Positions 46,063 through 49,747 of a DNA stretch of 49,747 nucleotides are shown here, piece by piece. How positions within the stretch are numbered: position 1 is the first letter of the stretch; the number at the start of each line of letters is the position of its first letter. This stretch comes from Desulfosarcinaceae bacterium (lineage in GTDB: Bacteria > Desulfobacterota > Desulfobacteria > Desulfobacterales > Desulfosarcinaceae). The notes beneath the pieces were generated by a model. It made no database searches. It was not told the DNA's origin and saw only the letters and a list, made by a program, of their open reading frames with translations. Both the position numbers and the translations under genes were made by a program. Location: positions 1 through 49,747 of the forward strand of contig JASJCL010000024.1 in NCBI GenBank assembly GCA_030066015.1, written 5' to 3'.

Positions 46063-47586
46063 ATGGCCCACGCCGCCGGTTACGACCACGATATCTTCAT
46101 CAGTTACGCCCACGATGACAACCACGCCCCGGCCGATGCGCCCGGCTGGGTGGATCAGTTTAAGGCCTGGCTGGAAAGCCTGCTCATTAAGCGCCGGGGA
46201 AAGAGATCACTGTCCATCTGGCGCGATACCGGTCGAATGAGGGGCAACACCCTCTTCGACGATGCCATCCGAGAGGCGCTGGAGGGCTCCGCCCTCTTTT
46301 TCGCTCTCGTGTCCCGCAACTATCTCAACTCTTCCTACTGCCGCGAGGAACTCACTTTTTTCCACCACTACAACAGCGCCACACCCGGCGGTCTGCGCGT
46401 GGGCAATCAGTCCCGCCTCTTCACATTACTGCTCAACAATATCCCCTACGGTCACTGCCAGCAATGGTCCCCGGCCCTCGAAGGCACCGCGGGATTCGCC
46501 TTTCACGATGCCGCCGACGAAACCGAGGTGGGCGATTTCACGGCCATCAACGATCTCCGCTTTCAGAAGCAGATGCGCCCCCTGGTGGATGCGGTGGAGC
46601 TCATCCTGGAGACAATGGAGGCGAAAACGCCTGCTGCAGTTGCCACCGGTGGGAGTGGCGCACCCCCGGCCAACACCTTTTACATGGCCGCCGTGGCCGA
46701 ACCCCTGCAAGATTTCAGAGAGCGCCTCATCGACGAGATTCAGGCCCGCCAGGGCACCGTTTTGAGCGAGATCCCCCCACCCTGGGAGTTCGACGGCCAT
46801 GGCGAGCGCGTGCGGCGGCTGCTGCAAACGGCCCGGTTTTCGATCCACCTCTTCGACCAGTGGCAGGGCGGCACCATCATCGATCGGCCGGCGGCCCACT
46901 ATCCCCAGGAACAATTCACCCTCGCCAGGGAGAGCCCGGCCCTGCCCCTGGTCTGGGTGCCGCCGGCGCTCGAGCTCGAGACCATCGAAAATCCGGTCCA
47001 GCGGCAATTTCTGTTGGACTGCGCCAACGGCGAGCGGGAGGCCGGCCAGTTCGAGTTCGTGCGCGCACCCCGGAGCGCCTTCATCGACCTGGTGCTTGAA
47101 AAACTGGCCCAGCCCCTGCCGGCCCCAGTGTCCGGCCAGGCGGGGCAAACCTACCTGGTGGACACTCACCAGAATGACAATGAATACGCCTTCGATCTGG
47201 CCCGTTACCTGGCCAAGCTGGGGGTGGACGTGGATTTCAATCAGGAGTCCCGCGACCCCCTGGTGAGCCTGGAGAGGTTCGAGCGCGCCATCCGCCAGGT
47301 CAAGCACCTGATCATTTTGTTCGGCCGGGTGGCCCCCGGCTGGCTGCAGGCGCGCATCAAGCTGGCCCTCAAGGCCATCTGCGATCAGTTTCAGGGGGAC
47401 CAGGAATGCTGTTTGGAAAAGATTTGGGTCTACAAGGTCCCGGCCAGCCGGGGTGAGATCGCCCTGCCGCGCCTGCCCCCCATCATCAAGATCCAGGTTC
47501 TCGACAACAGCCATGCCGACGCCATCGACCCGGCCGTGGCCGACCAGTTGCTGGGGGCAGCCGTCGGCCCGGGAGGTGGCCAGTGA
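46063..47586 (+). CDS. TIR-domain protein with two further TIR-like modules
   Basis: A 507-residue protein with three modules. Module 1 (about 8-165) is a true TIR domain: YDHDIFISYAHDD, WLESLL, a Ser/Ile-rich strand LSIWRDTGRM and SSYCREELTFF, where E96 is in the place of the catalytic glutamate of NAD-cleaving TIRs. Module 2 (about 205-345; FYMAAVAEPLQDFRERL) and module 3 (about 365-485; TYLVDTHQNDNEYAFDLARYLAKLG ... LIILFGRVAPGWLQARI) look like degenerate Rossmann-like TIR folds lacking that glutamate. The stop overlaps the STAND NTPase start (GTGA). AGGGACAG precedes the ATG. Bacterial TIR proteins often deplete NAD or make signals in anti-phage defence; this role is inferred. Confidence 0.85.
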   Translation: MAHAAGYDHDIFISYAHDDNHAPADAPGWVDQFKAWLESLLIKRRGKRSLSIWRDTGRMRGNTLFDDAIREALEGSALFFALVSRNYLNSSYCREELTFFHHYNSATPGGLRVGNQSRLFTLLLNNIPYGHCQQWSPALEGTAGFAFHDAADETEVGDFTAINDLRFQKQMRPLVDAVELILETMEAKTPAAVATGGSGAPPANTFYMAAVAEPLQDFRERLIDEIQARQGTVLSEIPPPWEFDGHGERVRRLLQTARFSIHLFDQWQGGTIIDRPAAHYPQEQFTLARESPALPLVWVPPALELETIENPVQRQFLLDCANGEREAGQFEFVRAPRSAFIDLVLEKLAQPLPAPVSGQAGQTYLVDTHQNDNEYAFDLARYLAKLGVDVDFNQESRDPLVSLERFERAIRQVKHLIILFGRVAPGWLQARIKLALKAICDQFQGDQECCLEKIWVYKVPASRGEIALPRLPPIIKIQVLDNSHADAIDPAVADQLLGAAVGPGGGQ

Positions 47587-49747
47587 CACCGACCCAGATG
47601 CCGCCCAATCCCTATGTGGGCCTGCGTCCCTTCGAGAGCCGGGACAGCGTCTACTACTTCGGCCGGGCCGAGCAGACCAAGGCCCTCCTGCGGCAGCTCC
47701 ACCGCCACCGCTTTGTGGCTGTGGTGGGCAGCTCGGGCACCGGCAAGTCCTCCCTGGTGCGCGCCGGCCTGATCCCCAACCTGGAGGCCGGCTTCCTGGT
47801 CCAGGACCGCGACCTGTGGCACATCGCCGTGATGAAGCCGGGGGTCTCGCCCCGGCGAAACCTGGCCGCGGCGTTGGCCGAAGCCGTGGGCACGGACGGC
47901 CCAACCTCCGGTGCAGGAACCCTGCTGAATGCCATTCGCGCCAGGGGTGCCCTGGGAATCCTCGACACCCTCGGGCCGGCCCTGACCGGTGCGGAGGCCA
48001 ATCTGCTCCTGGTGGTGGACCAGTTCGAGGAGCTCTTCCGGGAGGGGCGTATGGAGACCGGTGAGGCCCTGGAGGCCGCCGCCGATTTCGTGGGTATCTT
48101 GCTGCACCTGGCCCGGCAGACGAAGATGCCGGTGCACGTCTGTCTCACCATGCGGTCCGATTTCCTGGGGGAGTGCGACCGCTTCAGCGGCCTGCCAGAA
48201 GCCATGAACCAGAGCCAGTATTTGGTGCCGCGCCTGACCCGCGACCAGCGCCGCCAGGCCATCGAAGGCCCGGCCCGCCTCGGCGGCGCCACTGTCGCGC
48301 CCCGCCTGCTGGACCGCCTGCTCAACGAGGACATAGGTACCCGCGACGACTTGCCCATTCTCCAGCACGCCCTCATGCGCACCTGGGAAATGTGGTCTCA
48401 AAACGGTTCCGGCCCTATTGACTCTCGCCACTACGAGGCCGTGGGCACCGTCCGTGAGGCCCTGAGCCGGCACGCCGACGAGGCCCTGGAAGAACTTGGC
48501 GAAGCCGACCGGGAGCTGACCCGGCGGTTTTTCCAGGCCATCACCACCACCGACGCCGCCAACCGTCAGGTACGGCGTCAGGCCCGTTTGAACGAGGTGG
48601 CCGCGATCTGCGGCTGCGACGACGCGCCGGAGCGTATCATGGCCGTGATCGACCGATTCCGCCAGGGGGGGCGCAATTTCATCGTCTTGTCGTCGAAAAA
48701 CATCGCAGACGATCCCCTCATCGACATCTCCCACGAGAGCCTGATTCGCCAGTGGCCCACCCTGAGAAATTGGGCGAAGGATGAAGCCGAGGCTGCGGGC
48801 ATTTACCGGCGGTTGGCAGACGCCGCCCGACGGCACTCTGAAGAGAAAGCCAGCCTTTACCGGGACGCTGACCTGGAGGTCGCCCTACAATGGGAGGCAG
48901 AATCCCGGCCCACGTCCCAATGGGCCGAACGCTATGCCCCGGGCTATGATGTCGCCATCAGTTTTCTGGTGGAGAGCCGCCGTGAGCGGGAAGAAAAGGA
49001 ACATCGGCGAAAAAGAGCCCTTCGAAATGCCACGCTTGTTTCCCTGGTGATGATTGTCACCGCCATAACAGCATGCTGGTTGGGCTGGCAGGCCTTCAAA
49101 CAGCAGAAAAGGGCCGAAGCCAAACGCCTTGAGGCCAATTACAATCTGGCCAAGGTGTTCGAGGAAAAGGCCCTGGACGCTTTGGCCAAGGCCCTATCAA
49201 CGAATGACACAGGCCAGTACCAGCGGGCCTTCCTCTACGCCACGGAGGCATTGGCACAGGAGATTCCATCAGATCAGGATGCACTCAAACCGGCATCCAT
49301 CGGGTTGTTAATGGATCCGTTGAACATCAAGAAGGCACTGCCCTGCCGTTGGTTTTCCCCTTCTTCCGATCACCGCGTGGGTGCCGTTAGGGCCGTGAGT
49401 TTCAGCCCTGACGGGCGAACACTTGTCAGCGGCTCTGAGGATAATACCGTTCGCTTGTGGGATGCGGCCACGGGCGAAGCGCTGCAGGAGCTCAAGGGCC
49501 ATACTGGTTATGTCTGGAGCGTGAGTTTCAGCCCAGACGGCCAGATCATTGCCAGCGGCTCAGCTGATAAGACCATGCGGATTTGGGATGCGGCCACGGG
49601 CGAAGCGGTGCTAGAAATCAAAGGACATACTGGTTCTGTCAGGAGTGTAAGTTTCAGCCCTGACGGGCAAACACTTGTCAGCGGCTCTGAGGATAATACC
49701 GTTCGCTTGTGGGATGCGGCCACGGGCGAAGCGCTGCAGGAGCTCAA
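47583..49747 (+). CDS. STAND NTPase with membrane segment and WD40 repeats, 3' end outside window
   Basis: 721 residues are visible. NPYVGLRPFESRDSVYYFGR opens an nSTAND1-type NTPase with Walker A GSSGTGKSS (from G49) and Walker B LLLVVDQFEEL (near 141-151). A winged-helix and helical region follows. A single membrane helix lies at about 483-503 (TLVSLVMIVTAITACWLGW). From about residue 600 WD40 repeats begin and run off the edge. In such proteins the repeats sense a ligand and the NTPase oligomerises. The GTG start at 47583 overlaps the TIR gene stop, with GGGAGG upstream. The reading frame stays open through base 49747. Confidence 0.9.
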   Translation, partial: MTPTQMPPNPYVGLRPFESRDSVYYFGRAEQTKALLRQLHRHRFVAVVGSSGTGKSSLVRAGLIPNLEAGFLVQDRDLWHIAVMKPGVSPRRNLAAALAEAVGTDGPTSGAGTLLNAIRARGALGILDTLGPALTGAEANLLLVVDQFEELFREGRMETGEALEAAADFVGILLHLARQTKMPVHVCLTMRSDFLGECDRFSGLPEAMNQSQYLVPRLTRDQRRQAIEGPARLGGATVAPRLLDRLLNEDIGTRDDLPILQHALMRTWEMWSQNGSGPIDSRHYEAVGTVREALSRHADEALEELGEADRELTRRFFQAITTTDAANRQVRRQARLNEVAAICGCDDAPERIMAVIDRFRQGGRNFIVLSSKNIADDPLIDISHESLIRQWPTLRNWAKDEAEAAGIYRRLADAARRHSEEKASLYRDADLEVALQWEAESRPTSQWAERYAPGYDVAISFLVESRREREEKEHRRKRALRNATLVSLVMIVTAITACWLGWQAFKQQKRAEAKRLEANYNLAKVFEEKALDALAKALSTNDTGQYQRAFLYATEALAQEIPSDQDALKPASIGLLMDPLNIKKALPCRWFSPSSDHRVGAVRAVSFSPDGRTLVSGSEDNTVRLWDAATGEALQELKGHTGYVWSVSFSPDGQIIASGSADKTMRIWDAATGEAVLEIKGHTGSVRSVSFSPDGQTLVSGSEDNTVRLWDAATGEALQEL
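49384..49747 (+). repeat. Tandem WD40-coding repeats of 126 bases
   Basis: Three 42-codon units are visible, each with a VSFSPDG...SGS..T.R.WDAATGEA pattern. Unit 1 (core 49395-49495) and unit 3 (49647-49747) differ by only 2 of 101 bases, although unit 2 between them is clearly diverged. The array continues beyond the window. The mixed identity suggests recent exchange or duplication within the array. Confidence 0.85.

What the first reader, a model, noticed from the sequence alone, without database searches (positions are those of the whole stretch)
46063..49747. Two-gene unit: triple TIR-like protein coupled to a membrane-anchored WD40 STAND NTPase
The first gene joins a TIR domain with an intact catalytic-type glutamate (E96) to two degenerate TIR-like modules; the second, overlapping by four bases, is an nSTAND1 NTPase with a transmembrane helix and WD40 sensor repeats. 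TIR and STAND modules are both known from bacterial conflict systems, but I do not know this separate three-module TIR plus anchored STAND arrangement. A plausible model: the STAND protein senses a trigger at the membrane and activates the TIR protein for NAD cleavage or signalling, with the two degenerate modules serving as adaptors.
Basis: partly seen in the sequence, partly recalled or inferred. Interest (0 to 1): 0.75.

Follow-up and report, generated by a model that had tools for sequence, protein, structure and literature searches.

The report
Split bacterial immune receptor: TIR plus STAND
Two joined bacterial genes look like an immune receptor split in two, a membrane-anchored sensor-switch and a separate NAD-cutting effector linked to it by two dead enzyme-like modules, and related gene pairs in other bacteria swap both the sensor and the effector.

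Summary
Window 46063-47586 encodes a 507-aa protein of three alpha/beta modules; 47583-49745 (cut by the contig end) encodes an nSTAND1 NTPase, a transmembrane helix and WD40 blades. The frames overlap by GTGA.

Module 1 is a TIR domain; E96 aligns with the catalytic Glu of plant TIRs and is Glu in 43 of 46 family members. Module 2 resembles DUF4062/nucleoside-deoxyribosyltransferase folds; at the DUF4062 catalytic position 0 of 46 members have Glu and 41 have Gln, while 4 of 4 stand-alone DUF4062-like proteins have Glu. Module 3 is a TIR-/flavodoxin-like fold.

Relatives occur patchily in about seven phyla. nSTAND1 lies directly downstream in 46 of 46 regular members with enough sequence, against 0 of 29 other loci; a few irregular hits lack it. 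Sensors vary (WD40, pentapeptide, TPR, RHS). In two loci of one genome a CHAT protease replaces the TIR before modules 2-3. One relative fuses TIR, modules 2-3 and nSTAND1. So modules 2-3 look like a dead-enzyme adaptor plugging effectors into a membrane-anchored STAND switch.

Defence, NAD cleavage and topology are inferred. Related TIR/STAND operons are already in print. Verdict: new variant of a known kind.

The parts
46063..47586 (+). gene 1: effector-adaptor protein, 507 aa (TIR - DUF4062-like - TIR-like)
46078..46614 (+). module 1, TIR domain (aa 6-184)
   Evidence: Pfam TIR_2 8.4e-12; VIA Z 14.8 to SPARTA TIR and 14.7 to RUN1 TIR bound to NAD
46348..46350 (+). codon of E96, at the catalytic TIR position
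   Evidence: codon read; aligned with the Glu of WCLDEL/WCLMEL of plant TIRs; Glu in 43 of 46 family members, window included
46669..47109 (+). module 2, DUF4062/NDT-like domain (aa 203-349), predicted dead
   Evidence: VIA Z 12.6 to DNPH1; best PDB profile hit KpSwz DUF4062, E 0.014; Pfam DUF4062 over cut-off in relatives L012, L013, not in the window protein
46912..46914 (+). codon of Q284, at the position of the catalytic Glu of DUF4062 NADases
   Evidence: equation with KpSwz E97 is an inference
47140..47556 (+). module 3, TIR-/flavodoxin-like domain (aa 360-498); R431 four after the conserved Trp, where a TIR would have Glu
   Evidence: separate model pLDDT 87, VIA Z 12.1 to RRS1 TIR, tied with B12-binding and receiver folds; the equation of this position with the TIR Glu is mine, by the spacing from the Trp
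47583..47586 (+). GTGA overlap of stop and start
47583..49745 (+). gene 2: nSTAND1 NTPase - TM - WD40, 721 aa, open at the contig end
47610..48848 (+). nSTAND1 domain
   Evidence: Pfam PF20703
47727..47750 (+). Walker A (GSSGTGKS)
48003..48032 (+). Walker B (LLLVVDQFEE)
49029..49085 (+). predicted transmembrane helix (aa 483-501); K+R 9 on the STAND side, 5 on the sensor side
49362..49745 (+). WD40 blades (three seen, 126-bp repeat, 80% matches), cut by the contig end

Best explanation
A split, NLR-type conflict receptor. Gene 2 is the sensor-switch: a variable repeat sensor joined through a membrane helix to an nSTAND1 NTPase. Gene 1 is the effector: an NAD-cleaving TIR carried on a two-module adaptor that docks on the STAND protein. 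When the sensor meets its trigger, ATP-driven STAND assembly gathers the docked TIR domains, which then cleave NAD+ to deplete it or make an ADP-ribose signal. Shown by sequence or structure prediction: the parts, the near-constant pairing, fusion in some genomes, an intact Glu in module 1 only, variety of sensors, and replacement of TIR by CHAT in two loci of one genome. Inferred: physical docking through modules 2-3, oligomerisation, NADase activity, defence as the purpose, and the orientation (STAND inside, sensor outside).
For: nSTAND1 lies directly downstream on the same strand in 46 of 46 regular family members with at least 300 bp in hand (44 TIR, 2 CHAT), against 0 of 29 other loci (26 with a TIR match, 2 DUF4062-like, 1 with neither). 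One natural fusion TIR-m2-m3-nSTAND1 (L011) and one TIR-m3-nSTAND1 (L092). E96 is Glu in 43 of 46. Module 2: Glu in 0 of 46, Gln in 41; Glu in 4 of 4 stand-alone DUF4062-like proteins that align there. CHAT protease with HFMGHG and LNACKT motifs fused to modules 2-3 and followed by nSTAND1. Sensors: WD40, pentapeptide, TPR, RHS, others unnamed, at least 10 changes of sensor label ('none' and RDD counted as labels) on a quick 28-row tree with 27 rows scored. A TM segment follows nSTAND1 in 26 of 29 partners, with more K+R on the STAND side in 26 of 26. In G693 the locus has lost nSTAND1 and its TIR gene carries an in-frame stop, as if both decayed together. Some relatives sit beside caspase, RyR or TPR-S genes.
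Against: No experiment. PADLOC on 124 of 128 listed neighbouring ORFs gave scattered hits, mostly single and generic, no defence-island signal. The window's own neighbours look ordinary by eye (universal stress protein, chemotaxis receptor, ferredoxin-type); they were not scanned. L102, L103 and L104 pair with nSTAND1 but lack E96, so TIR catalysis is not universal. Irregular hits without nSTAND1: L117, a TIR with part of module 2 and nothing STAND-like in the 13 kb held, L111 (the decayed G693 locus) and L097, a TIR alone. hhalign finds no significant sequence link between module 1 and modules 2 or 3, and for module 2 to 3 only E 0.035 at 1.5% probability. The window's module 2 itself has no DUF4062 hit even at E 1. 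The pentapeptide class has four hydrophobic segments, which would put its sensor back in the cytoplasm. Module 3's fold match is not specific to TIR.
Confidence: 0.62

Rival explanations
1. Signalling receptor rather than killing system: the TIR makes a cyclic ADP-ribose-type signal that acts on other proteins (RyR, SLATT-like or caspase neighbours), and gene 2 is an envelope-state or developmental sensor, not an anti-phage sensor.
For: No defence-island signal. Some relatives neighbour RyR, TPR-S, caspase and (below cut-off) SLATT genes; phage RyR-domain proteins cleave cADPR signals (PMC13232231, abstract). Possibly outward-facing sensor.
Against: Patchy distribution and sensor turnover fit conflict better than a fixed physiological signal. 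The neighbours were picked by eye from 25 loci, with no baseline. The window itself shows none by eye.
Confidence: 0.2
2. Modules 2-3 are not mainly adaptors but a ligand sensor: the Gln-bearing DUF4062-like pocket binds NAD+ or an ADPR product and gates the effector.
For: The Gln is near-invariant (41 of 46), which is more than loss of catalysis needs; the fold is that of nucleotide-binding DNPH1/NDT.
Against: Pocket residues other than this position were not tested; replacement of TIR by CHAT while modules 2-3 and nSTAND1 stay is explained as simply by docking.
Confidence: 0.1
3. Module 1 is a scaffold TIR without NADase activity, as in animal adaptor TIRs; killing is done elsewhere.
For: Three family members (L102, L103, L104) have lost E96 and D55 yet keep the pair.
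Against: E96 in 43 of 46 and D55 in 43 of 46; closest folds include NAD-bound TIRs.
Confidence: 0.06

Closest known systems
TIR-STAND plus STAND-WD40 (WRAP) operon of cyanobacteria (Dunin-Horkawicz et al. 2014, as summarised in PMC9218822; passages read)
   Same: Coupled genes with TIR, STAND NTPase and highly repetitive WD40 propeller; proposed prokaryotic innate immunity
   Different: There the TIR sits on a second STAND protein; here the TIR protein has no STAND but a DUF4062-like plus TIR-like adaptor, and CHAT can replace TIR. The 2014 paper itself was not read
nSTAND1 conflict systems and effector-associated domains (PMC8195603, passages; PMC10907252, passages; PMC7159879, passages)
   Same: nSTAND1 named there (PMC8195603); interchangeable effectors (TIR, peptidases); PMC8195603 describes a conserved pair of bDLD3 proteins, one with STAND NTPase and FGS domains, the other with TIR, so TIR and STAND on separate neighbouring genes is known
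   Different: Coupling there is by a shared small domain on both proteins; here modules 2-3 are on the effector gene only, apart from fusions, and are alpha/beta TIR/NDT-like
Swarozyc / DUF4062 TIR-like NADases and TEP1 (PMC13174449; abstract, section 8 and passages)
   Same: Module 2's best solved match by profile is KpSwz (E 0.014); DUF4062 stands next to NACHT in TEP1, NWD1, NWD2 and NPHP3, several with WD40
   Different: Module 2 has Gln in place of the catalytic Glu and is a middle module, not the executioner
Plant TIR-NLRs (RPP1, RUN1, L6)
   Same: TIR effector with aligned catalytic Glu, STAND-type switch, repeat sensor
   Different: One polypeptide, LRR sensor, no adaptor modules, no transmembrane helix (plant NLR features recalled)

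Membership tests
TIR domain (module 1) | TIR profile and fold | tested here: met
   TIR_2 8.4e-12; 14 of 14 A2 members match TIR_2; VIA Z 14.8, rmsd 2.2, 132 aligned
TIR domain (module 1) | catalytic Glu in WCxxEL helix | tested here: met
   E96 aligned, 43 of 46
TIR domain (module 1) | NAD hydrolysis or cyclisation | not testable with these tools
   needs an assay
DUF4062 TIR-like NADase (module 2) | profile similarity | tested here: inconclusive
   no DUF4062 hit in the window protein at E 1, but over cut-off in relatives L012, L013 and L107, L109, L110; KpSwz best PDB profile hit, E 0.014
DUF4062 TIR-like NADase (module 2) | catalytic Glu | tested here: not met
   Glu in 0 of 46, Gln in 41; 4 of 4 aligned stand-alone DUF4062-like proteins have Glu
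TIR domain (module 3) | TIR profile | tested here: not met
   no Pfam TIR match there, hhalign with module 1 E 0.31
TIR domain (module 3) | TIR-type fold | tested here: inconclusive
   RRS1 TIR Z 12.1 tied with other flavodoxin-like folds
nSTAND1 STAND NTPase | profile with Walker A and B | tested here: met
   1.1e-96, GSSGTGKS, LLLVVDQFEE
Bacterial anti-phage defence system | protection against phage | not testable with these tools
   needs plating
Bacterial anti-phage defence system | location in defence islands or on mobile elements | tested here: inconclusive
   scattered PADLOC hits in 124 neighbours without a baseline; no hit in plasmids; viral-contig scan with one pattern found none; caspase/RyR/TPR-S neighbours in some loci
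Thoeris (ThsA/ThsB) | ThsB TIR with a ThsA effector gene | tested here: not met
   ThsB model only E 5.3e-4 over residues 11-94; partner is nSTAND1, not a ThsA protein (ThsA make-up recalled)

The most novel reading that the evidence does not exclude
This is a family of transmembrane split NLRs with Toll-like-receptor topology: a variable sensor outside the cytoplasm, an nSTAND1 switch inside, and interchangeable effectors (TIR NADase, CHAT protease) plugged in through a dedicated dead-NADase adaptor whose conserved Gln pocket reads NAD+ or its products.
Probability: 0.25. Interest if true: 0.85.

Novelty: new variant of a known kind. Interest (0 to 1): 0.63.

Why it matters
It shows a way to build an immune receptor in which sensor and effector are both exchangeable because a dedicated, catalytically dead NADase-like module does the coupling. 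It suggests a concrete role for a DUF4062-type pseudo-enzyme, links DUF4062, TIR and CHAT effectors in one frame, and, if the sensor faces outside, would join the topology of Toll-like receptors to the switch of NLRs in bacteria. All of this is testable with two genes.

Tried and rejected
Housekeeping locus: rejected, because matches are patchy: 4 of 97 relatives, the window's own genome included; 36 of 395 genomes of its phylum sample match, but of the rows listed only the window's own covers the whole profile; 2 whole-length of 291 in the phylum of L013, its centre included. Thoeris: rejected (and partner gene). Phage- or plasmid-borne: no plasmid match at tblastn 1e-5 and no viral-contig relative (one pattern only, so weak). 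Homology of the three modules to each other by sequence: not significant. Known RNA elements or tRNAs in the window: none. Solved structure for the nSTAND1 part: none at 0.01 by sequence. Literature: (open-access library only; one search was too loose to use) listed no paper that I recognised as describing this TIR/DUF4062-like/nSTAND1 pair; most listed papers were not opened, and subscription journals are not covered. Cys content as a topology clue: sensors 0.68% against STAND 0.89%, not decisive.

Rows left out of counts: the 48 'regular' members were chosen by me after the nSTAND1 results were on screen; 13 partners supplied the nSTAND1 profile. One search had no module 2 match for L015 and L020, and no module 3 match for L093, L107, L108, L114, L115, L116, L160, L090. 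One search left out L014 and L144 for under 300 bp downstream (L144 shows the start of nSTAND1). Irregular hits L092, L096, L097, L111, L112, L117, L125 were not in the 48: L092 (fused), L096, L112 and L125 have nSTAND1; L097, L111, L117 have none. In one search L051 and L150 did not align at the Glu position (L051 reads FTEKEYDYA by eye). L020, cut at its contig end, is but not. Four long ORFs of 128 were left out to meet the size cap. The ten neighbours were picked by eye. One search missed its own centre genome (L016), whose module 2 is divergent, so its 2 of 299 is a low count. In the tree six rows have very long branches, L011 was not scored and L007 was labelled pentapeptide by kinship.
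Full report
WHAT IS THERE. Two overlapping frames on the + strand end the contig: 46063-47586 (507 aa) and 47583-49745 (721 aa, open). The overlap is GTGA. Pfam finds TIR_2 at residues 11-102 of the first (8.4e-12) and nSTAND1 at residues 10-422 of the second (1.1e-96), followed by WD40. The second has Walker A, Walker B, one hydrophobic helix at aa 483-501 and three WD40 blades, whose DNA is a 126-bp tandem repeat with 80% matches. The contig ends inside this array; I infer an assembly break at the repeat. 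The genome has one nSTAND1 match over the whole profile (nine at E 0.001, the others partial) and three TIR_2 matches. The closest relatives with titles are Desulfobacterales, so I infer that group for the window.

THE THREE MODULES. An AlphaFold2 model of gene 1 (pLDDT 80.3, pTM 0.41, so the relative placing of modules is unsure) shows three alpha/beta units. VIA places residues 6-184 on TIR domains (SPARTA TIR Z 14.8, rmsd 2.2, 132 aligned; RUN1 TIR with NAD Z 14.7, rmsd 2.6, 149 aligned) and residues 203-349 on DNPH1/NDT enzymes (Z 12.6, rmsd 2.6, 122 aligned). Module 3 folded alone (pLDDT 87.1) matches RRS1 TIR (Z 12.1, rmsd 2.9, 132 aligned), tied with B12-binding and receiver domains, so it is TIR-like or only flavodoxin-like. 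E96 falls on the Glu of WCLDEL in RPP1 and WCLMEL in L6/L7; that this Glu is catalytic in plant TIRs is established knowledge (the RUN1 E100A mutant with NAD is in the list).

MODULE 2 IS A DEAD DUF4062 RELATIVE. The module 2 profile's best PDB hit is KpSwz DUF4062 (E 0.014, weak). Relatives L012 and L013 pass the DUF4062 cut-off, as do L107, L109, L110; the window protein does not. KpSwz needs E97 for defence and its cryo-EM structure is of the E97A form (PMC13174449). In the PDB chain an Ala stands where the module 2 family has its conserved Gln, in FTEKAFDYA, where the DUF4062-like L051 reads FTEKEYDYA; that this Ala is E97A is my inference. Over 46 family members that align there the position is Gln 41, Ala 3, His 1, Thr 1, Glu 0. 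In stand-alone DUF4062-like proteins picked up by the profiles it is Glu in 4 of 4 that align (L050, L149, L151, L159; two more did not align). In module 3 the position four after the conserved Trp is Arg 11, Lys 11, Gln 8 and others, Glu 0 of 40. E96 in module 1 is Glu in 43 of 46, the exceptions being L102, L103 and L104.

THE PAIR IS A CONSERVED UNIT. Relatives came from a genome-contig scan (17 loci) and whole-genome searches. Of 48 regular members, 46 had at least 300 bp downstream, and all 46 have an nSTAND1 domain there on the same strand, starting 0-549 bp after the end of the TIR gene (L011 in the same frame; in L090 a separate module 3 frame lies between). Of 29 other loci (26 TIR, 2 DUF4062-like, 1 neither), none has nSTAND1 in the flanks held, at most 1.5 kb a side. 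Seven irregular hits were left out: four have nSTAND1 and three do not. Of these three, L111 is telling: in G693 the neighbours are by eye those of the L165 locus, but nSTAND1 is gone and the TIR gene is split by a stop, as if both decayed together. L117 is a TIR with part of module 2 and no STAND gene in the 13 kb held. Titles cover Desulfobacterota, SAR324, Acidobacteriota, Bacteroidota, Cyanobacteria, Pseudomonadota and Eremiobacterota (phylum of each title by general knowledge). Matches are few: 14 of 345, 3 of 291, 10 of 247, centres included, and 2 of 299 with modules 2-3 (which missed its own centre).

SWAPPED ENDS. Sensors after nSTAND1: WD40 in the window, G019, L008, L013, L015, L160, L166, L170; pentapeptide repeats in G083 and L006; TPR in L009, L157, L168; RHS in G002; RDD in the two CHAT loci; no named repeat in several. 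On a quick tree of 28 gene-1 rows the sensor label changes at least 10 times (27 rows scored). Effectors: in L130/L155 and L135/L156, two loci of one genome from the Acidobacteriota search, the N-terminal part is a CHAT domain (4.3e-30 and 4.7e-30) with HFMGHG and LNACKT motifs (their catalytic meaning is recalled), then modules 2-3, then nSTAND1. The tree puts these adaptors, on a long branch, inside a starred ten-row clade that also holds the window. One protein (L011) is TIR-m2-m3-nSTAND1 in one frame; another (L092) is TIR-m3-nSTAND1. Fusion order and effector exchange together make modules 2-3 the natural coupling piece, with module 3 next to the STAND.

MEMBRANE. 26 of 29 nSTAND1 partners have a hydrophobic segment after the STAND domain (none in L013, L015, L020), and in all 26 the STAND side of the first one has more Lys+Arg than the far side. 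By the positive-inside rule this puts STAND and TIR in the cytoplasm and single-pass sensors outside. Against it: the linker is rich in charge anyway, the rows are related, the pentapeptide class has four segments and would return inside, and Cys content does not decide.

CONTEXT. PADLOC on 124 neighbouring ORFs of 25 loci gave 21 families, 18 of them with one member (mad3 4, caspase 2, AriA 2): no island signal, but no baseline either. Among ten neighbours that I picked by eye, Pfam found over cut-off caspase (L010, L156), RyR (L009, L015) and TPR-S (L009, L010, L163), and below cut-off SLATT (L015, L164) and DUF4231 (L015, L165). RyR-domain phage proteins cleave cADPR signals (PMC13232231, abstract), so an ADPR signal is a fair guess, not a result.

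MECHANISM AND NOVELTY. The best reading is a split NLR: sensor and STAND on one protein, TIR on a docked partner, gathered on activation to cleave NAD+. A cyanobacterial operon with TIR, STAND and repetitive WD40 is in print (PMC9218822, passages). PMC8195603 (passages) names nSTAND1 and describes a neighbouring gene pair, STAND-FGS and TIR, linked by a shared bDLD3 domain. TIR or peptidase effectors on nSTAND1/NACHT proteins are discussed in PMC10907252 (passages). My ten literature searches listed no paper that I recognised as describing this adaptor pair (calls under Tried and rejected). I therefore call it a new variant of a known kind.

Noticed in passing
L102, L103, L104 (genomes G638, G541, G678): Family members whose TIR has lost D55 and E96 (Lys, and Leu or Asn) but keep nSTAND1 downstream; the same three genomes carry a second copy (L116, L115, L114) with the Glu intact.
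   Followed up: partly
L171 3067-4404 (G693): By eye the same neighbourhood as L165, but nSTAND1 is missing and the TIR gene is split by a stop: a natural case of joint decay.
   Followed up: yes
L169 9766-17857; L174 2408-10519; L161 3382-7384: Two nSTAND1 genes in tandem behind one TIR gene; in L161 the first is short and by eye lacks a Walker A motif at the usual place.
   Followed up: no
L009 2836-5172, L015 19535-19828: RyR-domain genes next to the pair in two unrelated genomes, suggesting control of an ADP-ribose signal.
   Followed up: partly
L164 10114-11796, L165 11184-12284, L015 17640-19535, L171 1054-2826: Neighbour proteins with an N-terminal IGVTGHR motif; three of them (L171 was not scanned) have SLATT/DUF4231-like matches below cut-off.
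   Followed up: no
L006 5186-6136, L028 485-1444, L007 2-679: By eye the same divergent upstream gene (secreted-looking) in the three loci of the pentapeptide class; not seen upstream of the window pair.
   Followed up: no
G483 (SAR324) and G486 (Cytophagales): Several copies of the gene-1 family in one genome (9 and 7 matches at 1e-8, some partial).
   Followed up: partly
G000:C73:7438-7797 and G000:C12:20915-21217: Two further TIR proteins in the window's own genome (frames of 1531 and 545 aa), not matched over their length by the gene-1 searches.
   Followed up: no
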